From positions 173,746,096 through 173,810,095 of the forward strand of contig CM060985.1 in the NCBI GenBank assembly GCA_030765065.1: a stretch of 64,000 nt of DNA, given 5' to 3'. The position numbers were made by a program, and so were the translations under genes. This document shows positions 411-57,515 of the stretch, piece by piece. The notes beneath the pieces are model-generated. The model did no database searches. It saw only the letters and a list, made by a program, of their open reading frames with translations, and was not told the origin of the DNA. This DNA comes from Deroplatys truncata (Eukaryota; Arthropoda; Insecta; Mantodea; Mantidae). The first letter of the stretch is position 1. The number at the start of each line of letters is the position of its first letter.

Positions 411-640
411 CAGATAGAAAAGGGAAGGTTTAGCATGGGTGAGAACAGGGGCAATGTTCCTTGGATGGTTAAGAGGGAGTGAATCGCAAACATGTGTCAT
501 ATGGAGAAAAGTACAATGAAATACAACAAAACAAACTCCACTTTTGTTTGCGTCACCTTGTCTTCGGTGTGAAATATCGGCAGCCAGCCGAGTGAAGTAG
601 GTAAAGAATTATTCACTTAATATTTCCTGCTTATACCATA
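411..640. other. No feature recognised
   Basis: Short spacer between the ORF1-like relic and the first copy of the interspersed family. I see no coding potential or repeat structure in it. Confidence 0.5.
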
Positions 641-1534
641 TTTTTACTTTCTCTACTACGTATAGTAACTAGGGGAAGTATTGTATTCCACCCAAAAATT
701 TGATACCGAGATTTCACCGGGAATACATGTTTTGAGACACCCTGAATCCAAAAAAAGCATTTTTGCAAACATGTCCATGTGTGTGTCTGTCTGTGAATAG
801 CATGACTCAGAAACGAACACTCGGATAAATGCCAAACTTGGTATTTAGGTTCAGTATCTTCCAGAGATGCGACACGAAGGTTTTCAACAAAATCCCCCAA
901 CCCCAGATTACCCTTTACATGGAACATTTTTTGAAAATTTTAATTTTTTCAAAAATGGCTCTAACGATTTTGATTAAAATATATGTTTAAGATATTTTCA
1001 TGACAAATGAAATGTATATCTCGAATTTTCTGGGAATGTCTCCAAAAGTATTCTTCATTGTGAACGACTTTTGCATAACTGGTAAACCATAAGAGATAGA
1101 CAAAATTTTACTACACAAAAAATGTAGATCGCGTTAAAATACACAATTTATGTCATATACATTTTTTTTTTTATGTTGAGTGAACCATTTTCGAGGCATT
1201 GCTTGTTATTCCCTTAAATTTTCCAATATGTATACTTTTTCTCAAATGGGAATTCGTTATTCATTTTTTTTTGTCTTGGATATGCAAAGAGTATTAATCT
1301 GTGGCAAAAAGAATGGTGCTGCACATAGCAACCAGCTATTTAGAGATATGTCTGTCTGTGCTTAAAGGCATTTCTATATTGCCCTTGGAAATACAAAACA
1401 AGGGGAACATAGTACGCCTTAAGCGATAGTCAAATATTTTTATAATCTAGTTTAATTTAAAATATATGTTCAGCCAATTTCGGCAATTAGTAATGATGCT
1501 AATGACTACTAAAACAAGAACAACCAATAATAAC

Positions 1535-1579
<45 letters not shown>

Positions 1580-1765
1580 CTAATCATAATAGAGAAGTCA
1601 CGCTATTTTGTGAAATACTAATGTATGGGAATTTGTGGATCATTTAAAAAATTGTAAATTCAGTTTTTAAAATCTAGTATATCCAGAACACAGTATCAAG
1701 CTATGCCACTGTTTTATACCCACTAATAGAGATAGAAGGTAGAGAAAGTCATGTGTATGTATCAC
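641..1765 (+). repeat. Interspersed family 'R', copy 1
   Basis: This begins with TTTTTACTTTCTCTACTACG and ends near GTAGAGAAAGTCATGTG, so the same short motif sits inverted at the two ends. The first ~750 bp are nearly colinear with 42862-43600, and more diverged copies lie at 45638-46165, 47920-48640, 13290-13990 (-) and 59690-61030 (-). Shared landmarks are the blocks CACCCAAAAATTTGATACCG, CCAAACTTGGTATTTAGGTT and TGGCTCTAACGATTTTGATT. No long frame is conserved between copies, so it is probably a non-autonomous or very old element. I cannot assign it to a named family. Confidence 0.75.
1530..1580. repeat. (AAT)n microsatellite
   Basis: About 17 uninterrupted AAT triplets lie inside copy 1 of the interspersed family. 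Confidence 0.95.
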
Positions 1766-1978
1766 ATCAGATTTTTATTTGCTTTAAATGGAGCATTTAA
1801 TACAACAATCAGACTTGTCAATAGTTGTAGAATATTTAGTCTAGGTAGCGTAGACATTGAAGTCTCTTCTTTTGTATCCTGACTTTGTATGCGAGACCAA
1901 GACCTCTCTCCCAAGGGAAGGGAGGTCACAACAACTCAACTCTCCAGCAAGAGAAATATTTTGGCACTTGAGGTTCAG

Positions 1979-2548
1979 TATTTGTCTTGTTTGGGAAGGT
2001 TGCCATGGTAACGTGACATCATTATTGCTTGTCTAGGTATGGAAGTGAAGAACTTGTGTCTCAACACTCAAGTATTTGTCTTGTTTGGGAAGGTTGCCAT
2101 GGTAACGTGACGTCATTATTGCTTGTCTAGGTATGGAAGTGAAGAACTTCTGTCTCAACACTCAAGTATTTGTCTTGTTTGGGAAGGTTGCCATGGTAAC
2201 GTGACGTCATTATTGCTTGTCTAGGTATGGAAGTGAAGAACTTGTGTCTCAACACTCAAGTATTTGTCTTGTTTGGGAAGGTTGCCATGGTAACGTGACG
2301 TCATTATTGCTTGTCTAGGTATGGAAGTGAAGAACTTGTGTCTCAACACTCAAGTATTTGTCTTGTTTGGGAAGGTTGCCATGGTAACGTGACGTCATTA
2401 TTGCTTGTCTAGGTATGGAAGTGAAGAACTTCTGTCTCAACACTCAAGTATTTGTCTTGTTTGGGAAGGTTGCCATGGTAACGTGACGTCATTATTGCTT
2501 GTCTAGCTATGGAAGTGAAGAACTTCTGTCTCAACACTCAAGTATTTC
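1979..2548 (+). repeat. 94-bp tandem repeat, six copies
   Basis: The period is exactly 94 bp: the motif GGTTGCCATGGTAAC recurs at 1998, 2092, 2186, 2280, 2374 and 2468. Units are almost identical. Variants seen are TGACATCA for TGACGTCA in unit 1, CTTGTGTC versus CTTCTGTC downstream, and TCTAGCTATG in unit 6. Such homogeneity implies recent amplification or gene conversion. There is no coding frame across it. It lies about 16 kb upstream of the TBPH start codon. Confidence 0.97.
1999..2491. promoter_or_regulatory. Six X-box (RFX-type) sites, five paired with a perfect CRE
   Basis: Each 94-bp unit contains GTTGCCATGGTAAC, which fits the RFX X-box consensus GTNRCC(N)RGYAAC as two half sites. 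One base later comes TGACGTCA, the palindromic CREB/ATF site. X-boxes start at 1999, 2093, 2187, 2281, 2375 and 2469. The CRE is perfect in units 2-6 and TGACATCA in unit 1. RFX and CREB sites are known to act side by side, for example as the X1/X2 boxes of MHC-II promoters, and X-boxes drive ciliary genes. Binding here is inferred from sequence only. Confidence 0.6.
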
Positions 2549-3125
2549 TTTTGCATCCTCAAGCAGCAGCTTGTAGGTTGTAATTAAGAGCTTTAGATGA
2601 GCAGTCAGTCAGTGAGTAGTGTTAATATTAAAAGCAAGTAAAGTTTTGTCTTGTTTCTTTATTTTAATATGTTTCCAACAAATTATGTGTGTATTTTATT
2701 AGGAACTCCTTTTAATATGTGGTGAGTAAAGACAGACCTTTCAATTACTGCGTGGCCAATTAATTCATTGCAAATTTGCATAAAGAAAGACATTAAAAGA
2801 TCTGGGATGCTGTATAATATAAAATTAAAAGATTTGCTGGTGTTCTGGATTTTATTGGTTATACACTGTGTAGGTGTACCTTCAAATAGTAGATATGTTC
2901 CTTAAAGGACAGGGGGATTGACTTAACCTACAAATAGTTGGGTGAGCAATATTAATGGTTATTTCAATTTTAGTATGCATTATTTTTTTTTATTTTGCAC
3001 ACTGTCACTGTTGTGAATATTAGATTTTGAGGTTCTCTACCTATCACTCTGTTTTGTTGCACAATTGTGAATTAGGAATTATGCCAGACTACACTGCAAG
3101 GCAATTGGAATTTATAAACATTCAA
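2549..3125. other. No feature recognised
   Basis: AT-rich sequence after the 94-bp array. I see no coding frame or repeat relationship that I can support. Confidence 0.4.
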
Positions 3126-5295: not shown

Positions 5296-7996
5296 TTACC
5301 GGATATGCCCGCATGCCATGCGGGGAAGCCGGTGATGCCTCAAGCGGCGTGTTCTAGGGTTATAATCCCCAAGAGACCGAACGAGGGCGCTCTGATGGTA
5401 TGGCAACTGGTCGTAAAATTTTGCGGCCCGGCGCCTGATTTCATCCTCCACGTAAGGAAGAGATGAGGCTTCGTGAAGCAGTCTCACGGGAAAGGAGCGG
5501 TTTACAGAATAGATAGCCCGAAGGCCCCTATTCTGCACCCGTTGCAGGAGCAGCAGACTGGAATCTGCGGCCATGCCCCAGATCTCGCAGGCGTAAAGCA
5601 GGAAGGGGTTTATGATCGCTCGAAAAAGGTGTAACTTAAGAGGAACAGGCATCTCAGACCTCAGCATCGGATACAATGAAGCCGCAGCCCCATGCCCCCG
5701 ACGCGCGACGTCCCTGACGTGTCCCTTAAAAGTTAGGCCCTTATCTAACTTAACTCCCAGGTAGGTGACGGAATTTGTCCATTCTATCCTTCCGAGATAG
5801 CTGAATGTGGAGAGGATTGCGGAAAAGCGGCGCTTGGTGAAGAGAATGGCGTGGCTTTTTGCCGGGTTAATGGATAATCGCCAACGCCTGCACCATTCTT
5901 GGAGGAGGCGGAGGTGTCTCTGAATGGGGTAGAAGGCTCTGCGTGGGTTTTTACTTGTACAATACAGGAGCACGTCATCAGCGTATTGTGCCATGTTGAC
6001 GTGCTGCTCTGTGGGTAGGTCGGCCACATAGACACTAAAGAGTGTGGGGGATAACACAGAACCTTCGGGGACTCCGCCTCGTATTGGCCTTAGTGTAGAT
6101 TTGTGTCCCGCAACCGAAACTACAAAAGTGCGGTGTTTTAGATATGTGTGTAACAGATGTATTATGTGTGTAGGGAGCTCCAGACGGATGAGTTTTTTGA
6201 GGAGACCCGCATGCCAAGTCGTCGAGAAGGTCTTCTCGACATCCAGTGAAACCGTGGCGGTGTAAGCCCTGTCCTGGAAGCCCAGGGCAGCTGCCTCCAC
6301 CACGCGCAGCAATTGCTGGGAGGTCGAGTGCCCAGGACGGAAGCCGAACTGGTGTGGTGGGATGGCTCGAATGTCTCCTAAAGTAGGGGACAAGCGGGTA
6401 AGAATGGTCCTCTCGAAAATTTTCGAAAGGACAGAGAGGAGGCTAATGGTTCTGTACTTGGCAGGATGTACGGGATCTTTTCCCGGCTTCAATATGCAGA
6501 TCACCCGAGCCTCTCTCCACTCGCATGGAAAGTGACGCAGGGCGAAGCACATATTGAAGACCCTGGTGAGAAAGAGCACGGCCCGGAAGGGAAGGCGTCG
6601 TAGCATGGCGGGTGTGAGCCCGTCATGCCCCGGTGCCCTTTTGGGGTTGAGACGCCGGAGTGCGCCTTGGATTTCTGAAGGTCTTACAACCGGATATCGA
6701 TCCGCATCGTCGGGGGGACATCGAAGGAATCGGCGTACCTCCCTCCGAGTACGTTCGGAAAAGGCATCGTCCTGGGGCTCATCTCGAGGCCTCATGGTCC
6801 TCTCAAGGTAGTCAGCAAACACATTTGCTTTGGCTTGGGGGTGATAAGCCAGGCCTTGGGTGCCTTGGAGAGGGGAGGAATATTGATCTCCACGGTTATG
6901 GAGGCGTTTGGCAATCCTCCACACGTCGCCATCCTCGAGGTTCATACGGTTCATCGTCTCCTTCCACGCTCGCACCCTATGCTCGCGTAATCGGCGATGG
7001 ACCTCACGGCGCAAACGCCTATGAAGCACTCGATTCTGTGGCGTGCTGTGACGCTGGTAGAGTCTGCGTGTCGCCCAGGAGCGACGGATTAGCAGATGGA
7101 GTTCAAGAGGAAGGACGTCAGGGTGCAAGGGAGCTGGGATGTGGACGGTGAGGTTGTGGACCGTTCGTACCACGATGGACGTGAAGGAGGAGACAGCCAC
7201 CTCCAGGGTTGGGACGTCTGTGATTCTCGGGTTGGGTGGGAGGGAGTCGTTGAGACAAACCTTGACGCATTCCCAATCGACTTCCCGGTGTTGAACCTGA
7301 ACGCCGTGGTTGGCAACCTTGGTGTTAACCTCGGCTAACACAGGATTATGGTCTGAGTGTAGCGCGTTAATTGATGTGAGTGAGATATGAAAGGGAAAAT
7401 GCTTGATGATCGCGAAGTCGATAACGGTAGCCCGTCCTCGACCTCGTGGATGATGTGTAGGTTGCCAGGGACCCTCTGCTCTGAGTTGAGGATCCGCATC
7501 TATCATGCGTATAATTTCATTGCCTCGTCTACACGACGGGGGGCCGCAATGCCAACGCATATGTTTGGCATTGAAGTCCCCAGCCATGATAACGTTAGGA
7601 TGAAGGCGAGGATGGAAAGGTAATCGTTAAGTACGAACAGCCTTCGTGGAGAGTGGTAAACAGACACCACCATGACTTCTGTACCGCCGAGATCAATACA
7701 GGCGGCCGTGGCTACCAGGGTTTGAAGTGGCGGGAGAGGGATTGGACGATGGACAACACTGTTCCTCACGAGAACCGCAGTGCCACCTCCTCGGCGGCCC
7801 AAAGGTCAGTCCTGAGGCAACTGAAGCCCGGTAGGCGGAAACGGGTGTTGGGTTTGAGATGTGTTTCTCCGACTAGAATGAGGTCCAAGGCATATGAGCC
7901 AGCAAAGTGCTAGAGCTCACTCCCCTGATCGGCCATGCCACACGCGTTCCAAAACGCGAACCGAAACGAGATGCGTGACCTAGTTCGATTCGCCAT
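5296..7996 (-). pseudogene. Jockey-like LINE ORF2 (endonuclease + reverse transcriptase)
   Basis: The probable start is the ATG at 7996 (MANRTRSRISFRFAFWNACG), overlapping the end of ORF1. The N-terminal APE-type endonuclease shows FRFAFWNACGMAD, LILVGETHLKPN, GGGTAVLVRNSV, then IMAGDFNAKH and SDHNPVL. One in-frame TAG replaces a codon after GSEL near 7910, and frame changes occur near 7800 and 7590. The last 763 codons (5296-7587) are open. Counting from the M at 7587, they contain KRAPGHDGLTP (316-326), QFGFRPGHST (413-422), motif A SLDVEKTFS (447-455), RGGVPEGSVLSPTLF (503-517), the catalytic YADD (535-538) and the thumb region YLGVKLDKGLTF (609-620). Motif A has the catalytic Asp but S where most relatives have a second D, and E replaces Q in VPQGS. 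It copied its own mRNA by target-primed reverse transcription; this copy is dead but relatively young. Confidence 0.92.
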
Positions 7997-18641: not shown

Positions 18642-18879
18642 ATGTGTTCCTACCTTCAGGTAGCCGAAGATGAAGGCGAAGAACCTGTCGAGCTTCCTAC
18701 TGAAGATGATAATACGCTATTACTGTCGACTTTGGCCGCACAGTTTCCCGGTACTTGTGGCCTCAAATATCGTAATCCAGAATCACGAACTATGAGAGGA
18801 GTTCGTTTAGTCGAAGGAAGATTGCACCCGCCAGAAAATGGTTGGGGAAATTGTGTGTATTTCTGTGTGTTTCCCAAAG
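18642..18879 (+). CDS. TBPH: TDP-43 orthologue (TBPH), first coding exon
   Basis: This encodes residues 1-79 plus the first base of codon 80: [20 protein letters not shown], then [20 protein letters not shown] and [20 protein letters not shown]. It is the N-terminal oligomerisation domain of TDP-43, an RNA-binding protein of the nucleus that controls splicing and RNA stability. The ATG at 18642 is chosen because it gives the same numbering as human TDP-43 with no gaps (Tyr4, Val7, Gly40, Arg52). A pyrimidine-rich CCTACCTTCAG just before 18660 could mimic a splice acceptor, but the numbering argues against using it. The exon ends at a GTAAG donor (18880). The gene continues across the next two exons and leaves the window. 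Confidence 0.96.
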
Positions 18880-20620: not shown

Positions 20621-20632
20621 AATTTTAATGCA

Positions 20633-20928
20633 GTCCTCCATGGACTAGTGGTACCGTGCTAGCCTCTAGTTCCCAAGGTCGCGGGTTCAAATCCGGCGGA
20701 GGGCGATGGATTTTTTCGGGCGTAAAATCCTTAGCATGGCTTCCTTCGGAAGGGAAGTAAAGCCGGTGGTCCTGTGTCGTAGATTTACGCTACGTAAAAG
20801 AACCTCAAGCCTGATAAAGAGGCCTCTGAGCAAATTTACCAGTCTTTCACGCCCAATATGGAATGGGACGCTAAGGACCATAGTAGTTTAAGAGCATCCA
20901 TAAATAAAACTCAATTTCAATTTGTTTC
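20633..20928 (+). repeat. tRNA-derived SINE, copy 1
   Basis: The head GTCCTCCATGGACTAGTGG with B-box GGTTCAAATCC marks a tRNA-derived pol III promoter. The body carries GATGGATTTTTTCGGGCGTA, GGCTTCCTTCGGAAGGGAAG and CTTTCACGCCCAATATGGAA, and the tail is CATAAATAAAACTCAATTTC. A perfect 12-bp target duplication, AATTTTAATGCA, flanks it (20621-20632 and 20929-20940), which fixes the element ends. Confidence 0.93.
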
Positions 20929-20940
20929 AATTTTAATGCA

Positions 20941-21588: not shown

Positions 21589-21600
21589 ATCTGCAAGAAC

Positions 21601-21886
21601 TAAATTGAGCTTTATTTATAGACACTTTTAACTGCTATGGTTCTTAGTGTCCCATTCTATATTGGGCATGAAAGATCAAACATTTTACTCAGAGTACTCT
21701 TTATCAAGCTTGAGGTTCTTTTACGTAGTGTAAATCTACGACACGAGACCACTAGCTTTACTTTCCTTCTGAAGGAAATCATGCTAAGGGCTTTTACACC
21801 CGAAAAAATCCATTGCCCTCTTGGGTTGAACCTGCGACCTTGGGAACTAGAGGCTAGCATGGTACCCTTAGACCACAGCAGACGAC
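21601..21886 (-). repeat. tRNA-derived SINE, copy 2
   Basis: Reverse-complement copy of the same ~290-bp SINE. It is flanked by the target duplication ATCTGCAAGAAC (21589-21600 and 21887-21898). Confidence 0.93.
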
Positions 21887-22296: not shown

Positions 22297-23735
22297 ACGA
22301 GGGTCACTCAAAGTTTTTAGCAGCGATTAAACCTTAAAAGTGACAGAATATAAATGGTTTCATTTGAAAGAGGGATGGTTAAAGCTATAAATGCACTGTA
22401 CTACACAAGAGTGTGGCAAGTGTTTTAGCAGAATGCGGCTGGCATCACATACAGGCAAGTGCAATGGAGCTGTCATGACATTTGTGCCATGATTTATGAC
22501 TTCAAAAAGAGCGTAACAGCAAAGCAGTGTCACCAGTCTTTGGTAGACGTTTTTTAGGAGTCTGCACCATCCAGAGCTGGTTTTGAAAGTTCTAAAGAGG
22601 TTGGGAATCCCTAGAAGATGAAAAGAATTTAAATTGAGTTTTATTTATGGACGCTCTTTAACTGCTGGTCCTTAGCGTCCCATTCTATATTGGGCGTGAA
22701 AGACTGGTAATTTTGCTCTGATGCCTCTTTATAAGGTTTGAAGTTATTTATGTGCCGTAAATCTACGACACGAGACCACTATCTTTACTTTCCTTCTGAA
22801 GGAAGCCAGGCTAAGGATTTTTATGCCCAACAAAAGCCATTGCCTTCCGCCGGGTTTGAACCTGCAACCTCAGGAATTAAGAGGCTAGTATGGTAACCAC
22901 CGTACGATGGAGGACGAACCTTGCACAGGTTGCCCTCACACAATGGTAACTCCAGAAGCAGTTGCAACTGCGCAGAAATTAGTAATGGAGGATACCCACA
23001 TCACCTATGTTGACCTTCAGAGTGCCCTTAACATTGTATTAATGTAGTGAATACGAGTCTTTGTGATCAACTGCAAGTCACTAAGCATTGTTCTTGTTAC
23101 GTGCCGCATTCGTTAACAGAGGGTCAGAAAGCATGATGCCCTTTCGTGCTGAAAGAATTCAACAGTAGGAGAAGCAAAATATTACATTGTCACAGGAGAT
23201 GAATCCTGGATACACCACTACAATCAGAAACAAACCGGCAATTGGTGGTATGGTGCTTTCCAAATGATGACCCACCAATAAAGGTGTGAAGATACAAAAG
23301 TGCAGGAAAGAAGATGGTGGCTTTCTTCTCAAATACTGGTCACTTACCATCGGTCACCCTGGATACCCAAAAACAGTTATTGCAGAGTGGTTTGTGAGTA
23401 ATGGCCATCAGTCATCCAGAGACTGCTTCACTGTGACAATGCTTCTGCACACACATGGCCAGAACACTCGATTTCTTAGCTGATCAAAACGGCAGAGTCC
23501 TTCCTAATCCCCCATATTCTCCAGATTTAGCTCCATGTGATTTTTTCCTAAAATAAAAGAAAAGCTTCATGGTCACCATTTCTCATCACATGATGAGGAC
23601 ATTGGGGATTACATGGAGGCTGTGAACAACCTTCCAAAAGAAGCTTGTTGAGATGCATTTTCAAAGTGGTTTGAATGGAAGCAAAAGCATCTTCGTCATA
23701 ATGGAGATTACTTGGAAAAATTGTAAAAGTTACAA
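22297..23735 (+). pseudogene. Mariner transposon relic, split by a SINE
   Basis: It starts near ACGAGGGTCACTCAAAG, a typical mariner terminal repeat. Broken frames then give IYDFKKSVTAKQCHQSLVDVF, ESLEDE (before the SINE at ~22629-22914), VTPEAVATAQKLVMEDTHI, LTEGQKAWC, FSRFSSM-FFPKIKEKLHGH and DAFSKWFEWKQKHLRHNGDY. These follow the order of mariner transposase: helix-turn-helix, linker, DDE domain and C-terminal 'W--C/K-----GDY'. Multiple stops and frameshifts show it is dead. No matching right terminal repeat was seen, so the 3' end is lost. Confidence 0.85.
22629..22914 (-). repeat. tRNA-derived SINE, copy 3 (inside mariner)
   Basis: It interrupts the mariner frame between the LEDE codons and the following CTGCPHT-like codons, so it is younger than the mariner. 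It keeps CATTCTATATTGGGCGTGAA and a degenerate head CCTCCATCGTACGG (read on the - strand). Confidence 0.9.
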
Positions 23736-28094: not shown

Positions 28095-28136
28095 TACCAC
28101 CACCACCAACACTACTACCATTACCACCACCAAAAA
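28095..28136. repeat. (ACC/ACT)n trinucleotide repeat, left flank of the satellite
   Basis: The degenerate CCACCACCAACACTACTACC tract is separated from the main satellite only by a SINE. It is probably the seed sequence of the array. Confidence 0.7.
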
Positions 28137-28425
28137 TTTAGTTTTATTTATGGACGCTCTTTAACTACTATGGTTCTTAGCGTCCCATTCTATATTGGGC
28201 GTGAAACACCTGTAATTTTGCTCAGAGGCCTCTTTATCAGGCTTGAGGTTCTTTTACGTGCCGTACATCTACGACACGGGACCACCGGCTTTACTTCCCT
28301 TCCGAAGGAAGCCGTGCTAACGATTTTTACGCCCGAAAAAATCCATCGCCCTCCGCCGGGTTTGAACCCGCGACCTTGGGAACTAGAGGCTAGCACGGTA
28401 CCACCAGTCCACGGAGGACAACTAC
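28137..28425 (-). repeat. tRNA-derived SINE, copy 4 (at the satellite's left edge)
   Basis: A well-preserved reverse-complement copy. The head (- strand) reads GTCCTCCGTGGACTGGTGG with B-box GGTTCAAACCC, and the 3' end ATAAATAAAACTAAAT faces left. It is inserted within ACC/ACT-type sequence. Confidence 0.93.
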
Positions 28426-31400
28426 CACCACCACTGCTACTATTACCACCATTACCACTACTATTATTACCACCATTACAAATACTAACATTACCACTAC
28501 TACTATTACCACTATTACAAATACTAACATTACCACTACTACTATTCCCACCATTACAAATACTAACATTACCACTACTACTATTACCACTATTACAAAT
28601 ACTAACATTACCACTACTACTATTCCCACTATTACAAATACTAACATTACCACTACTACTATTCCCACCATTACAAATACTAACATTACCACTACTACTA
28701 TTACCACTATTACAAATACTAACATTACCACTACTACTATTCCCACCATTACAAATACTAACATTACCACTACTACTATTACCACTATTACAAATACTAA
28801 CATTACCACTACTACTATTACCACTATTACAAATACTAACATTACCACTACTACTATTCCCACCATTACAAATACTAACATTACCACTACTATTATTACC
28901 AGCATTACAAATACTAACATTACCACTACTATTATTACCACCATTACAAATACTAACATTACCACTACTATTATTACCACCATTACAAATACTAACATTA
29001 CCACTACTATTATTACCAGCATTACAAATACTAACATTACCACTACTATTATTACCACCATTACAAATACTAACATTACCACTACTATTATTACCACCAT
29101 TACAAATACTAACATTACCACTACTATTATTACCACCATTACAAATACTAACATTACTGCTACTATTATTACCACCATTACAAATACTAACATTACCACG
29201 ACTATTATTACCACCATTACAAATACTAACATTACCACTACTATTATTACCACCATTACAAATACTAACATTACCACTACTATTATTACCACCATTACAA
29301 ATACTAACATTACCAATACTATTATTACCACCATTACAAATACTAACATTACTGCTACTATTATTACCACCATTACAAATACTAACATTACCACTACTAT
29401 TATTACCACCATTACAAATACTAACATTACCACTACTATTATTACCAGCATTACAAATGCTAACATTACTGCTACTATTATTACCACCATTACAAATACT
29501 AACATTACCACTACTATTATTACCACCATTACAAATACTAACATTACCACTACTATTATTACCAGCATTACAAATACTAACATTACTGCTACTATTATTA
29601 CCACCATTACAAATACTAACATTACCACGACTATTATTACCACCATTACAAATACTAACATTACCACTACTATTATTACCAGCATTACAAATACTAACAT
29701 TACCACTACTATTATTACCACCATTACAAATACTAACATTACCACGACTATTATTACCACCATTACAAATACTAACATTACCACTACTATTATTACCAGC
29801 ATTACAAATGCTAACATTACTGCTACTATTATTACCACCATTACAAATACTAACATTACCACTACTATTATTACCACCATTACAAATACTAACATTACCA
29901 CCATTACAAATACTAACATTACCACTACTATTATTACCACCATTACAAATACTAACATTACCACTACTATTATTACCACCATTACAAATACTAATATTAC
30001 TGCTACTATTATTACCACCATTATAAATACTAACATTACCACTACTATTATTACCACCATTACAAATACTAATATTACCACTATTATTATTACCACCATT
30101 ACAAATACTAACATTACCAGTACTATTATTACCACCATTACAAATACTAACATTACCACCATTACAAATACTAACATAACCACTACTATTATTACCAGCA
30201 TTACAAATACTAACATTACCACTACGATTATTACCACCATTACAAATACTAACATTACTGCTACTATTATTACCACCATTACAAATACTAACATTACTGA
30301 TACTATTATTACCAGCATTACAAATACTAATATTACTGCTACTATTATTACCACCATTACAAATACTAACATTACCACTACTATTATTACCACCATTACA
30401 AATACTAACATTACCACTACTATTATTACCACCATTACAAATACTAACATTACTGCTACTATTATTACCACCATTACAAATACTAACATTACCACGACTA
30501 TTATTACCACCATTACAAATACTAACATTACCACTACTATTATTACCACCATTACAAATACTAACATTACCACTACTATTATTACCACCATTACAAATAC
30601 TAACATTACCAATACTATTATTACCACCATTACAAATACTAACATTACCACTACTACTATTACCACTATTACAAATACTAACATTACCACTACTACTATT
30701 CCCACCATTACAAATACTAACATTACCACTACTACTATTACCACTATTACAAATACTAACATTACCACTACTACTATTACCACTATTACAAATACTAACA
30801 TTACCACTACTACTATTCCCACCATTACAAATACTAACATTACCACTACTATTATTACCAGCATTACAAATACTAACATTACCACTACTATTATTACCAC
30901 CATTACAAATACTAACATTACCACTACTATTATTACCACCATTACAAATACTAACATTACCACTACTATTATTACCAGCATTACAAATACTAACATTACC
31001 ACTACTATTATTACCACCATTACAAATACTAACATTACCACTACTATTATTACCACCATTACAAATACTAACATTACCACTACTATTATTACCACCATTA
31101 CAAATACTAACATTACTGCTACTATTATTACCACCATTACAAATACTAACATTACCACGACTATTATTACCACCATTACAAATACTAACATTACCACTAC
31201 TATTATTACCACCATTACAAATACTAACATTACCACTACTATTATTACCACCATTACAAATACTAACATTACCAATACTATTATTACCACCATTACAAAT
31301 ACTAACATTACTGCTACTATTATTACCACCATTACAAATACTAACATTACCACTACTATTATTACCACCATTACAAATACTAACATTACCACTACTATTA

Positions 31401-34400
31401 TTACCAGCATTACAAATGCTAACATTACTGCTACTATTATTACCACCATTACAAATACTAACATTACCACTACTATTATTACCACCATTACAAATACTAA
31501 CATTACCACTACTATTATTACCAGCATTACAAATACTAACATTACTGCTACTATTATTACCACCATTACAAATACTAACATTACCACGACTATTATTACC
31601 ACCATTACAAATACTAACATTACCACTACTATTATTACCAGCATTACAAATACTAACATTACCACTACTATTATTACCACCATTACAAATACTAACATTA
31701 CCACGACTATTATTACCACCATTACAAATACTAACATTACCACTACTATTATTACCAGCATTACAAATGCTAACATTACTGCTACTATTATTACCACCAT
31801 TACAAATACTAACATTACCACTACTATTATTACCACCATTACAAATACTAACATTACCACCATTACAAATACTAACATTACCACTACTATTATTACCACC
31901 ATTACAAATACTAACATTACCACTACTATTATTACCACCATTACAAATACTAATATTACTGCTACTATTATTACCACCATTATAAATACTAACATTACCA
32001 CTACTATTATTACCACCATTACAAATACTAATATTACCACTATTATTATTACCACCATTACAAATACTAACATTACCAGTACTATTATTACCACCATTAC
32101 AAATACTAACATTACCACCATTACAAATACTAACATAACCACTACTATTATTACCAGCATTACAAATACTAACATTACCACTACGATTATTACCACCATT
32201 ACAAATACTAACATTACTGCTACTATTATTACCACCATTACAAATACTAACATTACTGATACTATTATTACCAGCATTACAAATACTAATATTACTGCTA
32301 CTATTATTACCACCATTACAAATACTAACATTACCACTACTATTATTACCACCATTACAAATACTAACATTACCACTACTATTATTACCACCATTACAAA
32401 TACTAACATTACTGCTACTATTATTACCACCATTACAAATACTAACATTACCACGACTATTATTACCACCATTACAAATACTAACATTACCACTACTATT
32501 ATTACCACCATTACAAATACTAACATTACCACTACTATTATTACCACCATTACAAATACTAACATTACCAATACTATTATTACCACCATTACAAATACTA
32601 ACATTACCACTACTACTATTACCACTATTACAAATACTAACATTACCACTACTACTATTCCCACCATTACAAATACTAACATTACCACTACTACTATTAC
32701 CACTATTACAAATACTAACATTACCACTACTACTATTACCACTATTACAAATACTAACATTACCACTACTACTATTCCCACCATTACAAATACTAACATT
32801 ACCACTACTATTATTACCAGCATTACAAATACTAACATTACCACTACTATTATTACCACCATTACAAATACTAACATTACCACTACTATTATTACCACCA
32901 TTACAAATACTAACATTACCACTACTATTATTACCAGCATTACAAATACTAACATTACCACTACTATTATTACCACCATTACAAATACTAACATTACCAC
33001 TACTATTATTACCACCATTACAAATACTAACATTACCACTACTATTATTACCACCATTACAAATACTAACATTACTGCTACTATTATTACCACCATTACA
33101 AATACTAACATTACCACGACTATTATTACCACCATTACAAATACTAACATTACCACTACTATTATTACCACCATTACAAATACTAACATTACCACTACTA
33201 TTATTACCACCATTACAAATACTAACATTACCAATACTATTATTACCACCATTACAAATACTAACATTACTGCTACTATTATTACCACCATTACAAATAC
33301 TAACATTACCACTACTATTATTACCACCATTACAAATACTAACATTACCACTACTATTATTACCAGCATTACAAATGCTAACATTACTGCTACTATTATT
33401 ACCACCATTACAAATACTAACATTACCACTACTATTATTACCACCATTACAAATACTAACATTACCACTACTATTATTACCAGCATTACAAATACTAACA
33501 TTACTGCTACTATTATTACCACCATTACAAATACTAACATTACCACGACTATTATTACCACCATTACAAATACTAACATTACCACTACTATTATTACCAG
33601 CATTACAAATACTAACATTACCACTACTATTATTACCACCATTACAAATACTAACATTACCACGACTATTATTACCACCATTACAAATACTAACATTACC
33701 ACTACTATTATTACCAGCATTACAAATGCTAACATTACTGCTACTATTATTACCACCATTACAAATACTAACATTACCACTACTATTATTACCACCATTA
33801 CAAATACTAACATTACCACGACTATTATTACCACCATTACAAATACTAACATTACCACGACTATTATTACCACCATTACAAATACTAACATTACCACCAT
33901 TACAAATACTAACATTACCACTACTATTATTACCACCATTACAAATACTAACATTACCACTACTATTATTACCACCATTACAAATACTAATATTACCGCT
34001 ACTATTATTACCACCATTATAAATACTAACATTACCACTACTATTATTACCACCATTACAAATACTAATATTACCACTATTATTATTACCACCATTACAA
34101 ATACTAACATTACCAGTACTATTATTACCACCATTACAAATACTAACATTACCACCATTACAAATACTAACATAACCACTACTATTATTACCAGCATTAC
34201 AAATACTAACATTACCACTACGATTATTACCACCATTACAAATACTAACATTACTGCTACTATTATTACCACCATTACAAATACTAACATTACTGATACT
34301 ATTATTACCAGCATTACAAATACTAACATTACTGCTACTATTATTACCACCATTACAAATACTAACATTACTGATACTATTATTACCACCATTACAAATA

Positions 34401-35915
34401 CTAACATTACTGATACTATTATTACCACCATTACAAATACTAACATTACTGATACTATTATTACCAGCATTACAAATACTAATATTACTGCTACTATTAT
34501 TACCACCATTACAAATACTAACATTACTGATACTATTATTACCACCATTACAAATACTAACATTACTGATACTATTATTACCACCATTACAAATACTAAT
34601 ATTACTGCTACTATTATTACCACCATTACAAATACTAATATTACCGCTACTATTATTACCAGCATTACAAATACTAATATTACTGCTACTATTATTACCA
34701 GCATTACAAATACTAACATTACCACTACTACTATTACCACCATTTCAAATACTAATATTACTGCTACTATTATTACCAGCATTACAAATACTAACATTAC
34801 CACTTCTATTATTACCACCATTACAAATATTAACATTACCACTACTACTATTACCACCATTACCACTATTATTACCAGCATTACAAATATTAACATTACC
34901 ACTTCTATTATTACCACCATTACAAATACTGACATTACCACTACTACTATTACCACCATTACCGATACTATCATTACCACCATTACAAATACTAACATTA
35001 CCACTACTACTATTACCACCATTACAAATAGTAGCATTACCACTACTACTATTACCACCATTACAAATACTAACATTACCACTACTACGATTACCACCAT
35101 TACAAATACTAATATTACCACTACTACTGTTACCACCATTACCGCTACTGTTATTACCACCATTTCAAATACTAATATTACTGCTACTATTATTACCAGC
35201 ATTACAAATATTAAGATTACCACTACTACTGTTACCACCATTACCGCTACTGTTATTACCACCATTTCAAATACTAATATTACTGCTACTATTATTACCA
35301 GCATTACAAATACTAACATTACCACTTCTATTATTACCACCATTACAAATATTAACATTACCACTACTACTATTACCACCATTACCACTACTATTATTAC
35401 CACCATTACAAATACTAACATTACCACTACTATTATTACCAGCATTACAAATATTAACAATACCACTTCTATTATTACCACCATTACAAATATTAACATT
35501 ACCACTACTACTATTACCACCATTACAAATACTAACATTACCACCATTAAAAATACTAACATTACCACTACTACTATTACCACCATTACAAATAGTAACA
35601 TTACCACTATACTATTACCACCATTACAAATACTAACATTACCACTACTACGATTACCACCATTACAAATACTAACATTACCACTACTACTATTACCAAC
35701 ATTACAAATACTAACATTATCATTACTACTATTATCACCATTACAAATACTAACATTACCAATACTACTATTACCACCATTACCGCTACTATTATTACCA
35801 CCATTACAAATACTAACATTACCACTACTGCTATTATCACCAATACAACTACTATTACCGCCATGACTACTACCTCTACAAATACTACCACCGATATGAC
35901 TGCTACTACTGCCAC
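28426..35915 (+). repeat. 39-bp-period satellite with a 1,959-bp higher-order repeat
   Basis: The basic unit is 39 bp, of the type ATTACAAATACTAACATTAC + CACTACTATTATTACCACC, with ~190 copies and occasional 24-bp short units. Landmark variants recur at a fixed distance: AAATGCTAACATTACTG has its ATG at 29457, 31416 and 33375, each 1,959 bp apart, and the block of ATTACCACTATTACAAATAC units recurs at ~28690, ~30650 and ~32610. About three tandem copies of a 1,959-bp unit therefore span roughly 28680-34320. Copy 3 carries 78 bp (two units) extra near 33810-33890. The flanks after 34320 are more irregular. The + strand is strongly G-depleted. Because the period is a multiple of three and lacks stop triplets, both strands are open for kilobases (618 codons on +, 2,405 on -); these frames are artefacts. 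Confidence 0.97.
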
Positions 35916-38761: not shown

Positions 38762-39982
38762 CACTATGTGGTCAAAAGTATCTGGACACCTGGCTGAAAA
38801 TGACATACAAGTTCGTGGCACCCTCCATTGGTAATGCTGGAAGTCAATATGGTGTTGGCCCTTGATGACAGCGTTCACTCTTGCAGGCATACTTTCAATC
38901 AGGTGCTGGAAGGTTTCTTGGGGAATGGCAGCCCATTCTTCATGAAGTGTGGAACTGAGAGAGGTATCGATGTAGGTCGGTGAGGCCTGGCACGAAGTCG
39001 GCGTTCCAAAACATCCCAAAAGTGTTCTATAGGATTAAAGTCAGGACTCTGTGCAGGCCAGTCCATTACAGGGATGTTATTGTCGTGTAACCATTCCGCC
39101 ACAACCCGTGCAGTATGAAGAGGTGCTCGATCGTGTTGAAAGATGCAATCGCCATCCCCGAATTGCTCTTCAACAGTGGGAAGCAAGAAGGTGCTTAAAA
39201 TATCAATGTAGCTCTGCGCTGTGATCGTGCCATGCAAAACAACAAGGGGTGCAAGCCCCCTCCAGGAAAAACACGACCACACCATAACACCACTATCTCC
39301 GAATTTCACTGTTGGCACCACACACGCTGGCAGATGTTGTTCACCGGGCATTTGCCATACCCACACCCTGCCATCGGATCGCCACATTGTGTACCATGAT
39401 TCATCACTCCACACAATGTTTTGCCACTGTTCAATCATGTAATGTTGACGCTCCTTACACCAAGCGAGGCGTCGTTTGGCATTTTCCTGTGTGATGTGTG
39501 GCTTATGAGCAGCCGCTCGACCATGGAATCCAAGGTTTCTCACCTCGTGCCTGTCATAGGGATCCTGATGCAGTTTGGAATTCCTGTGTGATGGTCTCGA
39601 TAGATGTCTGCCTACTACTCTTTACGATCCTCTTCAAATGTCCACAGTCTCTGTCAGTCAACAGGCGAGGTCGGCCTGTACGCTTTTGTGCTGCACATGT
39701 CCCTTCACGTTTCCGCTTCACTATCACATCAGAAACAGTGGACCTAGGGTTGTTTAGGAGTGTGGAAATCTCCCATACAGACTTCTGACACAAGTGACAC
39801 CCAATCACCTGACCACATTCGAAGTCCATGAGTTCCACGGAGCGTTCCATTCTGCTGTTTAATGATGTCTAATGACTACTAAGGTCGCAGATAATGAGTA
39901 CCAGGCAGTAGGTGACAGCACAATGCACCTAAGATGAAAAACGTATGTTGTGGGGTGTCCGGATACTTTTGATCACATAGTG
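38762..39982 (-). mobile_element. Tc1 transposon (DD34E), recently dead
   Basis: The 1,221-bp element has inverted ends CACTATGTGGTCAAAAGTAT (left) and ATACTTTTGATCACATAGTG (right). A TA lies at 38760-38761; the right TA is mutated. The - strand gives the N-terminal DNA-binding part at 39850-39554 (MERSVELMDFECGQVIGCHL, then TGRPRLLTDRD) and the catalytic part at 39543-38899. Catalytic residues are visible: NIVWSDESW (D), FQHDRAPLHTA (D) and FNPIEHFWD (E), with 34 residues between the last two. One frame break lies between the two parts (~39545-39575) and another in the C-terminus (~38985-39005), where the frame switches to CQASPTYIDTSLSSTLHEEW. The C-terminal end is still legible to ~38800. 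It moves by cut-and-paste into TA. Confidence 0.95.
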
Positions 39983-40880: not shown

Positions 40881-42365
40881 GTTTTCACAGCTTAAGCTTT
40901 GATTCTGGCTTAATCCGAAGCTTAAGCTACAGTGGAGTTTTACAGAGTGCAATTCAAGTGATAAGCCGAACTTATATGTGGCTTAGCTTAAACCCAGTCG
41001 TCCTCCGTGGAATAGTGGTACCGTGCTAGTCTCTAGTTCCGAAGGTCGTGGGTTCAAACCCGCTGAGGGCGATGGATTTTTTTAGGTGTAAAAATCCTTA
41101 GCATGGCTTCCTCCGGAAGGGAAGTAAAGCCGGTGGTCCTGTGTCGTAGATTTACGGCACATAAAAGAACCTCAAACCTGATAAAGAGGCCTCTGAGCAA
41201 AATTACCATCTTTCACGCCCAGTATAGAATGGGATGCTAAGGACCATAGTAGTTAAAGAGCGTCCATAAATAAAAATAAAAAAAACTATCTTAAACCATA
41301 CTGAACTGTGGCTTAAGTTACAATAGAGCTGTACAGTGTGTAGTTTAATCGATAAGCTGAGCTTATATGTGGCTTGGTACCATACTGAACTGTGGTTTAA
41401 GCTACGCTAGAGTGCATAATTCAAGCAATAAGCTGAGCTTATACATGGCTTGGTTTAAGCCATACTGAACTGTGGTTTAAGTTACACTAGAGTGCATAAT
41501 TCAAGCAATAATCCGAGCTTATATATGGCTTGATTTAAACTATACTGAAGTGTAGTTTAAGCTACACTAGAGTGCATAATTCAAGCAATAATCCGAGCTT
41601 ATATATGGCTTGATTTAAACCATACTGAAGTGTAGTTTAAGCTACACTAGAGTGCATAATTCAAGCAATAAGCTGAGCTTATATGTGGCTTGATTTAAAC
41701 CATACTGAAGTGTAGTTTAAGCTACACTAGAGTGCATAATTCAAGCAATAATCCGAGCTTATATATGGCTTGATTTAAACCATACTGAAGTGTAGTTTAA
41801 GCTACACTAGAGTGCATAATTCAAGCAATAAGCTGAGCTTATATGTGGCTTGATTTAAACCATACTGAAGTGTAGTTTAAGCTACACTAGAGTGCATAAT
41901 TCAAGCAATAATCCGAGCTTATATATGGCTTGATTTAAACCATACTGAAGTGTAGTTTAAGCTACACTAGAGTGCATAATTCAAGCAATAAGCTGAGCTT
42001 ATATGTGGCTTGATTTAAACCATACTGAAGTGTAGTTTAAGCTACACTAGAGTGCATAATTCAAGCAATAATCCGAGCTTATATATGGCTTGATTTAAAC
42101 CATACTGAAGTGTAGTTTAAGCTACACTAGAGTGCATAATTCAAGCAATAAGCTGAGCTTATATGTGGCTTGGTTTAAGCCATACTGAACTGTGGTTTAA
42201 GTTACACTAGAGTGCATAATTCAAGCAATAATCCGAGCTTATATATGGCTTGATTTAAACCATACTGAAGTGTAGTTTAAGCTACACTAGAGTGCATAAT
42301 TCAAGCAATAAGCTGAGCTTATATGTGGCTTGGTTTAAGCCGTACTGAACTGTTGTTTAAGCTAA
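40881..42365 (+). repeat. 80-bp satellite arranged as 160-bp dimers, interrupted by a SINE
   Basis: The unit is AGTGCATAATTCAAGCAATA + (A)TCCGAGC/GCTGAGC + TTATATRTGGCTTGATTTAA + ACCATACTGAAGTGTAGTTT + AAGCTACACT. AGTGCATAAT recurs every 80 bp at 41491, 41571, 41651, 41731, 41811 and on. Two unit types alternate strictly: A (ATCCGAGCTTATATATGG) and B (AGCTGAGCTTATATGTGG), from about 41571 to 42310. The repeating unit is therefore a 160-bp A-B dimer. More diverged units lie at the left end, split by the SINE at 41000-41285. Confidence 0.95.
41000..41285 (+). repeat. tRNA-derived SINE, copy 5 (inside the 80-bp satellite)
   Basis: A near-full copy from GTCCTCCGTGGAATAGTGG to CATAAATAAAAATAAAAAAA. 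It splits a satellite monomer, so it inserted after the array existed. Confidence 0.93.
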
Positions 42366-42861: not shown

Positions 42862-43995
42862 ATTTTTACTTTCTCTACTACGTATAGTAAGTATGGGAAG
42901 TATTGTATTCCACCCAAAAATTTGATACCGAGATTTCACTGGGAATACATGTTTTGAGACCCCCTAGATCCAAAAAAAGCATTTTTGAAAACATGTCCGT
43001 GTGTGTGTCTGAGAACAGCATAACTCAGAAACGAACAGTCGGATAAACACCAAACTTGGTATTTAGGTTCAGTATCTTTCAGAGATGCGACACGAAGGTT
43101 TTCAAGAAAATCCCCCCACCCCAGATTACCCTTTACATGTAACATTTTTCGAAAATTTTAATTTTCTCAAAAATGGCTCTAACGATTTTGATTAAAATAT
43201 CATATGTTTAAGATGCTTTCATGACAAATAAAATGTATATGTTGAATTTTCTGGGAACGTCTCCAAAAGTATTCTTCATTGTGAACGACTTTTGCATAAC
43301 TCGTAAACCATAAGAGATAGACAAAATTTTACTACACACAAAATGTAGATCGCGTTAAAATACACAATTTATGTCATATACATTTTTTTTGTTGAGGTAA
43401 CCATTTTCGAGATATTGCTTGTTATTCCCATAAATTTTTCAATACTTATTTTCTCAAATGGGAATTCGTTATTCATTTTTTTGTCTTGGATATGCAAAGA
43501 GTATTAATCTGTGGCAAAGAGAATGGTGCTGCATCTAGCAACCAGCTATTAAGAGAGATGTATGTGCTTAAAGGCTACTGTATTTCTATATTGCCCTTGT
43601 AAATATATATTCCCCTTACATCTACAAGAAAATTAGCAATAAGATAGAGTCCGCAAATGTTTTTCTTGATTAACATGAAGTAGATGGAGAATAAGGGTTT
43701 GTAAAAATAGTTTGTACAAGAGTAGAGAAAGTCATGTGAGTGTAACATATCAGATTTTTTTTTGTCCTGGTAATGCAAAGAGAATGGAATACTCCACATA
43801 GCAACCAACTGTTAAAATATTTGACTACCAATTCCCCTTGCATCTACAAGAAACTTAGCAATAAGTTAGAGTCTGCAAATGTTTATCTCGATTAACATGA
43901 AGTAGATGGAGAATAAGCGTTTGAAAAAATAGTTTGTACAAGAGTAGAGAAAGTCATTTGAGTGTAACACATCAGATTTTTTTCTCATGTTTGGT
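42862..43995 (+). repeat. Interspersed family R, copy 3, with duplicated tail
   Basis: Close match to 641-1370 in order and sequence up to about 43600. The tail block (ATTCCCCTTRCATCTACAAG ... AGTAGAGAAAGTCATKTGAG) then occurs twice, at about 43608-43760 and 43830-43975. The terminal motif AGAGAAAGTCATGTGAGTGT mirrors the TTACTTTCTCTACTACG start. Confidence 0.8.
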
Positions 43996-45122
43996 TTTTC
44001 TTAACCACAGTAATTTGTCCAATTGCTTGCACTCTATTACATGTTTATGCTGCTTCACAATTTCTGGGAGAATGCTGACTTCTTGAGAAGTAAAGTTCTA
44101 CATTTTGACTGATTTTTTTCAGTCATTTTAACTTTATGTTGCTGGATAACATACAAAAGCGTTATTTAGCAACAGCGTCACCATAAACAAACAATGGGAA
44201 TTTACTCGATGCTCATGCACAAATGTTACCAACTTTACAGTTCTGTAGAATCGTTCAGTCAGTAAAGCCAAACCTGGTAGCCATACTATGAAACTCACAA
44301 AGCATAAGCCTTGTTTAAGCAGTGTCTGTAGCTTACTAAAGCTTCAACTTAAGCTTAAACTGTGAAATCTGCCCTTAAGGATATTCTCAAACATAAGATT
44401 TTTACATAAAGACCGCTTACTGTTGGCGAGATTCAGTTCATTAGTGAGCTGCCAAGAAATTGATACAAATAAAGAACTGAGTAGTAAAACTTGCTTGAAT
44501 GTCACTACAGTAGTGTGTAAATGCTGAACACCAATAGTTTGAATATTCATAAGAGTTGTTTAATGTTATGTGCTGATTCATAAACCTATATCGTATTACG
44601 GTTTCTTTGTATATTTCATTACCATCTACTTACCCACTCCTGTATTTTGTGTCATTGGAGATCATGCACAGTTTGTTACATAATTGAACCAATCAGACAC
44701 GTCAGTATCCTGTTGAACAGTCCATAATTATATGGCTGCTTATGTGCAAAACCTGTGCGACTTTTTTCAAGTCTAATTCTAAAACAAAATAAATTAGATT
44801 AAAATGCAAAATAATTTCCAATATTGGAGAAATAGGACTCTGTTTTACTAACCTGGTGCAAAACTTCAGATATGTGTATCTCTCAATGGGGTTCAGGATG
44901 GCATTACATTCAGGACTTAACATTCGAGGGGCAGGCCTCTTTATCTTTGCAATAAACTGCGATATTGGCATTATCAATTGGATGAGCCATTTATAAACAT
45001 TTTAAATCCTGGAAGAAAAGACGATGTTTGCTGCTCAGACGGCAATAAAATGTCCTTGACTGTAAAACAATATAACCTGAGAGGTAACATGGACAGGACT
45101 CTAATTGCGTCCACATATTATG
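43996..45122. other. Intronic sequence without recognised elements
   Basis: AT-rich. Open frames are short and unassigned. Confidence 0.4.
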
Positions 45123-45123
45123 T

Positions 45124-45385
45124 CATCCTCCGTGGTGTAGTGGTTACCAGGTTGTGGGTTCAAACCTGTCGGATGGCCATGGATTTTCTTTGGACCTAAA
45201 AATCCTTAGCATGGCTTCCTTCAGAAGGAAAGTAAAGCCATTTGTCCTGTTGATTTATGGCATGTAAAAGAACCTCAAGCCTGATAAAGAAGCCTCTGAG
45301 CAAAGTTACCGGTCTTTCACGCCCAGTATAGAATGGGATGCTAAGGACCACAGCAGCTAAAGAGCTCCATAAATAAAAAAGAAAC
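45124..45385 (+). repeat. tRNA-derived SINE, copy 6 (small internal deletion)
   Basis: A-box region CGTGGTGTAGTGGTTACC runs directly into GGTTGTGGGTTCAAACC, so about 20 bp between A and B boxes are missing compared with other copies. The body and CATAAATAAAAAAG tail are intact. Confidence 0.9.
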
Positions 45386-55559: not shown

Positions 55560-57515
55560 ACTTATTTATTGCTAACATCCCAAGTATCAAGAGTGACATT
55601 ACCTTATTCAAAACTATAACATAGCAAGTCCTCTGCATTTGCTGGTGTCAGTCTCCTCCTCCTGTTGCTAACCACCAAGCTGTATTTACAGAAAGATCTC
55701 TCCAAGTTAACACTGAATCATGGAAACCACACAGTGATATAATCTGGATGAGATGATTTCAAATTGCAAATTACCTCCATCTTCACTTGCACATGCTCCT
55801 CCTTGCTAACATGTTCTCTGAAGGTGCAAGGTGTCCTTGTGTATGGTATACATTCTTTAAGCTTAAGTAGCTCTGTAAGGGACAAGACCTTCGAGGCATT
55901 TGTTGGATCAAATTAATCTGACCTGGATCAGTCATCTTCAATTGTTTGATTTTCACCAAAGCTACTTGTGAGGAGGCAGAAGATATCTTGGTTTCAACAG
56001 CAATCCTTACTTTTGTTGGTAGATGACTAAATACCCCTTCACTGTATCTTACTAAGTAGACGTATGGTGGCATATGATGACCCTTCCAAGAAAGTGATCA
56101 ATTCCATATGGACACATAAAACAGCTTGCAATTTTATTATATGGATGTTAGTTGCATCAGGTTCTTACAAGAACCATATCCCCACATTCCCATCTTCAAG
56201 CGTCTTGAACAAATCTGCTATATCCTTGATATGGGTTGCCAAGTATATTGCAGTAGTCCTCCGTGGTGTAGTGGTTACCATGCTAGCTCTAGTTCCCAAG
56301 GTTGCTGGTTCAAACCCAGCAGAGGGCGATGGATTTTTTCAGACATAAAAATCCTTAGCATGGCTTCCTTTGGAAGGGAAGTAAAGCTGGTGGTTTGTGT
56401 TGTAGATTTACGTCACATGGAAGAACCTCAAGCCTGATAAAAGAGGCTTCTGAGCAAAATTACTGGTCTTTCACGCCCAATATAGAATGGGACGCTAAGC
56501 ACTGCAGCAGTTAAAAAGAATCCATAAATAAAACTCAATTTTAATATAAGTACATTGTAGATTTAAACCAAAAGCTCCATCTGAAACACACTGGCATAGG
56601 AAAAGCACATATTTTATGCTTTTCAGCAGAGTCCTCGTACTTCAACTTAAAAAGTGATATGTGACTATTTTTGCATTTCTTAGTGTTTAGGAACGTATTT
56701 TTCATTTTCACGCCTGCAAAGTTAAGTTCATTCGTCTTCAAAAAGTTTCCCAACAAGGTTTATTTTGTTTGCCCAGCACCGGAATATGATTCAGCTCTTC
56801 CATTATCTTTCAGGGTATTCACACGCATCATATAACTGAAGAATCCGTTATTACTGCTATGGCATCATTTTCAATTTCATATGACCACAGGGTATCCAAA
56901 TGGTTTGGTCCATTGGCCATATCCAGCATTACTGACAAAGACAAATGCACCATTCTGTTGCTGGCACAGCAAGACGAAGCAACACATTGAATACACAACT
57001 ACCATTTTTATCTGTTGTTTTGTTGTATAATATGAACACATCTTTGTTTTTCACATCCTCTTTTATTTTCTCTTGCTTTTTCTGTCCCAACTTTCCAATG
57101 TATTTTTGCCAAATCCAGTTTGCAGTCAGTAATTCCCCTACGCCACCTTGAATACAATTACTCATCCAGTTTTGGATTGCAGGATGATCAAGTTTCTCGA
57201 CTGATATCTTTCGCTTGACTTGCATTAGTTAGCATTTCTTACAACATGGCCACATGTAGGGTATTGGCACAAGCTTGGGCAGATTTTGGGCATTTCATGT
57301 GTTTATCTGTAACTTCAGATTTGAATTCCATGGTACACTCTTGTAATGTTACTTTTACCTTTGGCATGCTGTATTCAAAACCACTATAGTCTGTTGTCTG
57401 CAGTAACGCAGTAGTAACATACACTTCCAAGTTTCCAACAGTAATGATGCTGGTTGCTATACAGATGCTCATGATGTCATGACTCATTAATTCCCGCTCT
57501 TGGTGTGTCAATCAG
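55560..57515 (-). pseudogene. hAT transposase relic (CGGBP1-like group), split by a SINE
   Basis: From right to left on the - strand: MPKVKVTLQECTMEFKSEV and HMKCPKSAQACANTLHVAML (57511-57239), then QVKRKISVEKLDHPAIQNWM, GELLTANWIWQKYIGKL and VFILYNKTTDKNGSCVFNVL (57225-56929). These are followed by FLKTNELNFAGVKMKNTFLN with FPMPVCFRWSFWFKS (56756-56541). Beyond the SINE come VRYSEGVFSHLPTKVRIAV and further pieces to ~55560. The order matches insect hAT proteins related to CGGBP1, with the DETTD motif altered to NKTTD. Many stops break it. Confidence 0.7.
56256..56547 (+). repeat. tRNA-derived SINE, copy 7 (inside the hAT relic)
   Basis: Full-length copy. GTCCTCCGTGGTGTAGTGG and GGTTCAAACCC form the pol III head, and CATAAATAAAACTCAATTTT is the tail. 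Diverged target duplications flank it: AAGTATATTGCAGTA on the left (56241-56255) and AAGTACATTGTAGA on the right. Confidence 0.93.

What the first reader, a model, noticed from the sequence alone, without database searches (positions are those of the whole stretch)
1979..2548. Tandem array of paired RFX X-box and CRE sites
Seen: six 94-bp units, each with GTTGCCATGGTAAC and, one base later, TGACGTCA (TGACATCA in unit 1). Known: RFX proteins bind such X-boxes, CREB/ATF bind CREs, and the two cooperate at adjacent X1/X2 boxes in MHC-II promoters. Inference: this could be an amplified enhancer or a protein-binding satellite ~16 kb upstream of TBPH. The motif pair is kept nearly perfect while other unit positions vary.
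Basis: partly seen in the sequence, partly recalled or inferred. Interest (0 to 1): 0.75.

Follow-up and report, generated by a model that had tools for sequence, protein, structure and literature searches.

The report
Minisatellite grown inside a transposon
A 94-letter piece of a scattered, gene-less jumping DNA element was copied six times in a row at this spot; the piece contains what look like binding sites for two gene-control proteins, but nothing yet shows that they act here, so the find is mostly ordinary.

Summary
The array is real: six complete 94-bp units at 1977-2540 plus 7 bp, each with GTTGCCATGGTAAC, one base, then TGACGTCA (TGACATCA in unit 1). The claim that the motif pair is kept while other positions vary is wrong: only 3 of 94 columns vary and one of them is in the CRE (0.70 expected). 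The one whole-genome scan that was answered (4.29 Gb) found the exact pair at 24 places: 5 in this array and 19 elsewhere, each a single copy. All 19 are related to one another around the motif (mean pairwise identity 0.76 outside it). Three of 19 keep CAG(A/T)GGCGGC-type ends with perfect 8-bp target-site duplications and no long ORF was seen in the two checked, pointing to a non-autonomous hAT-type transposon. The window copy (579 to at least 2989) is split by a nested repeat (about 651-1773), and one internal segment was amplified in place between AGTATTT direct repeats. The X-box/CRE pair thus came with the transposon. Whether the family keeps it above neutral decay could not be tested: copies were chosen by the motif, and the genome tool then stopped answering. 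No enhancer function is shown.

The parts
579..650 (+). Left end region of the hAT-type element (outermost bases eroded), cut off from the rest by a nested insertion
   Evidence: Matches positions 5-75 of the L016 copy at 75%; alignment
651..1773 (.). Nested insertion of another dispersed repeat within the element (edges approximate)
   Evidence: Element homology stops at 650 and resumes at 1774; a copy of 640-1393 lies at 42862-43605, 90.7%; 7-bp duplication candidate ATTTTTA found by sliding search, may be chance
1774..1976 (+). Element sequence left of the array
   Evidence: Part of the match of L016 positions 69-381 to window 1774-2077, 80.5%
1977..2540 (+). Six 94-bp units, the amplified internal segment of the element
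   Evidence: Tandem Repeats Finder; 3 of 94 columns variable; the 19 relatives have one motif copy each
1999..2021 (+). X-box 1999-2012, 1-bp gap, CRE-like TGACATCA 2014-2021 (unit 1)
   Evidence: Pattern search
2093..2115 (+). X-box and CRE, unit 2
   Evidence: Pattern search
2187..2209 (+). X-box and CRE, unit 3
   Evidence: Pattern search
2281..2303 (+). X-box and CRE, unit 4
   Evidence: Pattern search
2375..2397 (+). X-box and CRE, unit 5
   Evidence: Pattern search
2469..2491 (+). X-box and CRE, unit 6
   Evidence: Pattern search
2541..2547 (+). AGTATTT, partial seventh unit and right member of the short direct repeat bordering the segment
   Evidence: 7-bp match to the unit start; relatives have AGTATTTCT-like sequence at the same place in their majority sequence
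2548..2989 (+). Element sequence right of the array; clear homology to 2989, probable end near 3041
   Evidence: Matches to L003 and L016 right parts up to 2989; weaker alignment onward

Best explanation
The array is a minisatellite born inside an old copy of a dispersed, non-autonomous, hAT-type DNA transposon. Shown: the same motif pair sits once in each of 19 other places, all related to this element; both sides of the array continue the element in order; in the relatives' majority sequence the single segment is bordered by near-identical AGTATTTCT sequences. Inferred: slippage or unequal exchange between these short direct repeats duplicated the segment, and exchange between units then expanded it to six and kept them alike, with private changes left in the first and last unit. 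The X-box and CRE came with the transposon. They may once have served the element by binding host RFX and CREB-type factors, but here they are most likely carried along without a selected role.
For: Exact pair at 24 places in 4.29 Gb, 19 outside this array, reversed control 0. All 19 align around the motif and hold one copy of it. Left terminus like CAGAGGCGGCCG in 11 of 19 at -253 to -302; right terminus plus identical 8-bp target-site duplications in 3 of 19, L003, L008, L016; longest open stretch 88 and 102 aa in L003 and L016, the two checked. Window copy flanks match the element on both sides of the array. AGTATTT at both array edges. Private changes in units 1 and 6, 1.3% mean pairwise difference.
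Against: No transposase was tied to the family, so the superfamily rests on ends and duplication length. 16 of 19 copies did not show both ends with a duplication, and the window copy's ends are eroded with no duplication seen by eye. The pair is a strikingly good composite site for an accident (about 1e-7 per 94 bp for the strict pair), which leaves room for a function in the element.
Confidence: 0.88

Rival explanations
1. Selected enhancer cluster: the transposon brought an RFX/CREB composite site and its six-fold amplification was favoured because it regulates TBPH or another nearby gene.
For: Perfect consensus sites in 5 of 6 units; 94 bp is 8.95 helical turns at 10.5 bp, so sites face one side; 16.1 kb from the TBPH start codon.
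Against: Motif columns vary as often as the rest (1 of 3, expected 0.70). In Drosophila most listed RFX-target X-boxes are close to the ATG and an X-box alone does not predict RFX control (PMC2375033, passages). RFX2 and CREM control largely separate gene sets in mouse testis (PMC4498915, passages). No expression or chromatin data.
Confidence: 0.06
2. The pair is a working part of the transposon itself, for example host-factor sites driving an internal promoter of its autonomous relatives, kept in the family by selection while it was active.
For: The pair is ancestral to the family and complete in 19 dispersed copies, more than chance for so strict a composite. The neighbouring block 33-53 bp right of the motif start agrees with the majority at 0.95, above the 0.86 average.
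Against: Copies were chosen by the exact motif. The free spacer base is G in 17 of 19, no better than other columns, and the columns touching the motif are at 0.88-0.90. About 770 family copies decaying neutrally would leave 20 exact ones.
Confidence: 0.25
3. Protein-binding satellite: arrays of this unit exist in many places and act as a sink or chromosomal structure.
For: Tandem sites are present here.
Against: In the exact scan only this place has more than one copy; the other 19 are single. Arrays whose units all carry a changed site would have been missed.
Confidence: 0.02

Closest known systems
Non-autonomous hAT-superfamily DNA transposons (hAT-type MITEs)
   Same: Short terminal inverted repeats beginning CAG(A/T)GGCGGC, 8-bp target-site duplications, about 1 kb, no long ORF in the two copies checked; hallmarks of the superfamily are recalled
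   Different: One copy has an internal 94-bp segment in six tandem units; transposase partner not identified
Minisatellites arising within transposons
   Same: Local expansion of an internal segment bordered by short direct repeats, near-identical units; the general class is recalled
   Different: The unit holds a consensus-quality X-box beside a CRE
MHC class II X1/X2 boxes bound by RFX and CREB/ATF
   Same: An RFX-type site directly beside a CRE; binding of X1 by RFX and X2 by ATF/CREB is stated in PMC3987962 (passages)
   Different: Full palindromic X-box, 1-bp gap instead of the recalled 3-bp gap, not at a known promoter; S and Y boxes not looked for
RFX X-boxes of ciliary gene promoters in Drosophila
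   Same: Fits GYTRYYN1-3RRHRAC (PMC2375033, passages)
   Different: Far from a start codon, inside a transposon, paired with a CRE

Membership tests
hAT-type non-autonomous transposon | 8-bp target-site duplication | tested here: met
   Perfect in 3 of 19 copies: L003 CAACCGTG, L008 TATTATTA, L016 CTTGTGGC; not seen in the other 16 by that script nor in the window copy by eye
hAT-type non-autonomous transposon | Short terminal inverted repeats with hAT-like outer bases (recalled CAG-type) | tested here: met
   L016 first bases CAGAGGCGGC, reverse complement of last bases CAGAGGCGGC; L003 CAGAGCCGGC and CAGTGGCGGC; left end within 2 substitutions in 11 of 19
hAT-type non-autonomous transposon | Moved by a hAT transposase | not tested
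   No transposase was searched for in the assembly; the genome tool stopped answering
Tandem array of RFX X-box and CRE sites | Sequence fit to both consensuses | tested here: met
   X-box 6 of 6, perfect CRE 5 of 6 units
Tandem array of RFX X-box and CRE sites | Motif retained above the rest of the unit within the array | tested here: not met
   1 of 3 variable columns in the motif, expected 0.70; low power
RFX/CREB enhancer | Factor binding or open chromatin | not testable with these tools
   No such data on hand
RFX/CREB enhancer | Motif kept above neutral decay across the repeat family | tested here: inconclusive
   Sample selected by the motif; 20 exact copies fit about 770 neutral copies; motif-blind searches unanswered
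MHC-II-type X1/X2 module | 3-bp gap between the X1 half-site and X2 (recalled) | tested here: not met
   Gap is 1 bp in 6 of 6 units; the 19 relatives were selected with that gap

The most novel reading that the evidence does not exclude
A hAT-type transposon family carries a built-in RFX-CREB composite element that drove its activity in ciliated or germ-line cells, has scattered such modules over a 4.3-Gb genome, and at this site has been amplified six-fold into a regulatory cluster.
Probability: 0.1. Interest if true: 0.55.

Novelty: new member of a known kind. Interest (0 to 1): 0.22.

Why it matters
It turns a striking, regulatory-looking array into a traceable history: a transposon spread a ready-made pair of transcription-factor motifs, and short direct repeats inside one copy let it grow into a minisatellite. 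If a motif-blind survey showed the pair kept above neutral decay, the family would be a clean case of a transposon distributing RFX/CREB modules.

Tried and rejected
Single-strand DNA folding of one unit: no excess structure, z 0.05. Rfam (gathering threshold) and tRNA scans of the window: nothing. The exact 23-mer in viral contigs and genome contigs and a second stretch of the unit in viral contigs: 0; these hold viral, bacterial and archaeal records, so this says little.

Ten paper searches ran. None listed a paper on RFX or CRE sites in a hAT element or minisatellite; they cover only the held open library and my terms. Of the papers cited, PMC2375033, PMC4498915 and PMC3987962 were seen as passages only, as was PMC10760452, whose reference list names a paper on cooperative RFX and X2bp binding to X and X2 boxes; that paper itself was not seen. 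The one paper printing an X-box string was seen as a listing only.

An upstream mini-exon of TBPH was looked for and not found; an in-frame ATG at 18642 makes it unnecessary. The third TBPH exon has no Pfam match at 0.001 but matches human TDP-43 structures at 3e-20.

My early idea that the array lies outside any repeat (from, whose output was cut) was wrong: it is inside the element, which a nested repeat splits. Uniqueness of two neighbouring palindromes was also overrated: 17 other places in the window have a 14-bp near-palindrome within 3 bp of an 8-bp palindrome, several of them in one AT-rich stretch.

Dropped before counts: the five exact hits of this array from the 24; L020-L027, repeat fetches of the eight places of L001-L008; alignment columns with letters in fewer than 12 of 19 copies.

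Full report
Observation. Six full 94-bp units lie at 1977-2540, with 7 more matching bases to 2547. Every unit has GTTGCCATGGTAAC, one base, then TGACGTCA; unit 1 has TGACATCA. Shuffled sequence gives none. The units differ at 3 of 94 columns: 42 (CRE, unit 1 only), 61 (unit 6 only) and 80 (three G, three C); mean pairwise difference 1.27 per unit, 1.3%. One of the three variable columns is in the 22 motif positions, 0.70 expected, so the array gives no evidence that the motif is specially kept. With three variable columns the test has little power. The private changes in the outer units fit homogenisation by unequal exchange (inference).

Chance. A strict X-box within 10 bp of a perfect CRE is expected about 1.3 times per Gb at this composition and about 1e-7 times in a given 94 bp. 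The motif was noticed after the fact, so these figures overstate the surprise. The exact pattern is expected about 7e-5 times per Gb. Less strict sites are common: 11 matches (7 plus, 4 minus) to the restricted Drosophila X-box consensus lie in this window outside the array, and one more match to the strict form. No perfect CRE lies outside the array, 0.44 expected.

Whole genome. The scan of the window's own assembly was answered once: 4.29 Gb in 818 contigs, the window being C11:173746096-173810095. The exact pair is at 24 places, 5 in this array (unit 1 does not match exactly) and 19 elsewhere; the pattern read backwards gave 0. I fetched all 19. Each fetched stretch holds one exact copy. 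Each aligns with the L016 copy across the motif. Mean pairwise identity in the 380 bp around the motif, motif left out, is 0.76 (range 0.60-0.85), and the window copy has 0.79 with them on average.

What the repeat is. A left terminus within two substitutions of CAGAGGCGGCCG stands 253-302 bp left of the motif in 11 of 19 copies. In 3 of 19 (L003, L008, L016) a mirrored right end is present and both sides carry identical 8-bp target-site duplications; lengths 959, 1200 and 1236 bp. L016 positions 420-706 match 8 other places in the window, so that copy carries another inserted repeat and the element proper is nearer 950 bp. The longest open stretches in L003 and L016 are 88 and 102 aa. By recalled hallmarks this is a non-autonomous hAT-type DNA transposon. 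P-type elements also make 8-bp duplications (recalled), and no transposase was tied to the family.

The window copy. Positions 5-75 of L016 match 579-650 and the match resumes at 1774, so about 651-1773 is a nested insertion; a 90.7% copy of its 640-1393 part lies at 42862-43605. The element continues through the array to at least 2989, probably to near 3041. Its ends are eroded and I saw no duplication by eye. In the relatives' majority sequence the single segment is bordered by CAGTATTTCTCTTG on the left and GAAGTATTTCTTTTGC on the right; in the window AGTATTT stands at both array edges. The array is thus an in-place expansion of an internal segment of the element.

Is the motif kept by selection in the family? 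Not testable with what was answered, because the copies were chosen by the exact motif. The one free base inside it, the spacer, is G in 17 of 19 relatives, like other columns. Columns next to the motif agree with the majority at 0.88-0.90, against 0.86 on average. A block 33-53 bp right of the motif start is better kept, 0.95. At this divergence about 2.6% of copies would keep all 22 positions neutrally, so 20 exact copies (19 and the window) would imply about 770 copies. That is an ordinary number for a transposon family in a 4.3-Gb genome (my judgement), so no excess is shown, and none is excluded. The 2.6% is rough: it rests on the motif-selected sample and only 14 CpG columns.

Function. 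The X-box fits a Drosophila RFX consensus, but the paper reports that an X-box alone does not predict RFX control, and most target sites in the part of its table that I saw are near the ATG (PMC2375033, passages). The array is 16.1 kb from the TBPH ATG at 18642. In mouse testis RFX2 and CREM regulate largely separate gene sets (PMC4498915, passages). RFX and CREB/ATF do bind the adjacent X1 and X2 boxes of HLA promoters (PMC3987962, passages); the 3-bp spacing there is recalled, against 1 bp here. A TDP-43-type gene and a 4.29-Gb genome are shown; that the animal is an insect is my inference.

Verdict. A real, well-read array with an ordinary origin. The regulatory reading is open but unsupported. 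The motif-blind survey that would decide it could not be run, because the genome tool answered only.

Noticed in passing
41352-42364: A second minisatellite: 80-bp unit, 12.7 copies, 93% matches, with the inverted repeat AGTGTAGTTTAAGCTACACT in a unit; 28 of 80 columns vary among 12 units.
   Followed up: partly
28450-35801: A 7.4-kb satellite of a 39-bp unit, about 187 copies, 90% matches, lying between TBPH exons.
   Followed up: no
18642-54298: TBPH (TDP-43) exons on the plus strand at 18642, 18993 and 54140; the last two are separated by about 35 kb of repeat-rich intron.
   Followed up: partly
44138-44185: Two restricted-consensus X-box matches in inverted arrangement, followed by AGCGTCACC, which resembles the recalled X1/X2 order.
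   Followed up: no
L001-L019, 33-53 bp right of the motif start: The block around TGTCTAGCTATGGAAGTG agrees with the majority at 0.95 in the 19 relatives, the best of the regions compared outside the motif; it was not used to choose the copies.
   Followed up: partly
28134-28423, 20626-20933, 41000-41275, 58215-58455, 56256-56549, 22626-22915, 45126-45378, 21598-21883: A short dispersed repeat of about 290 bp at 8 places in the window, 74-84% identical to the piece inserted in the L016 copy of the element.
   Followed up: no
5299-7587: Minus strand: open 763-aa frame with endonuclease and reverse transcriptase domains, a non-LTR retrotransposon, possibly a young copy.
   Followed up: no
38902-39543: Minus strand: Tc1-like transposase frame with a DDE_3 domain, E 5e-14.
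   Followed up: no
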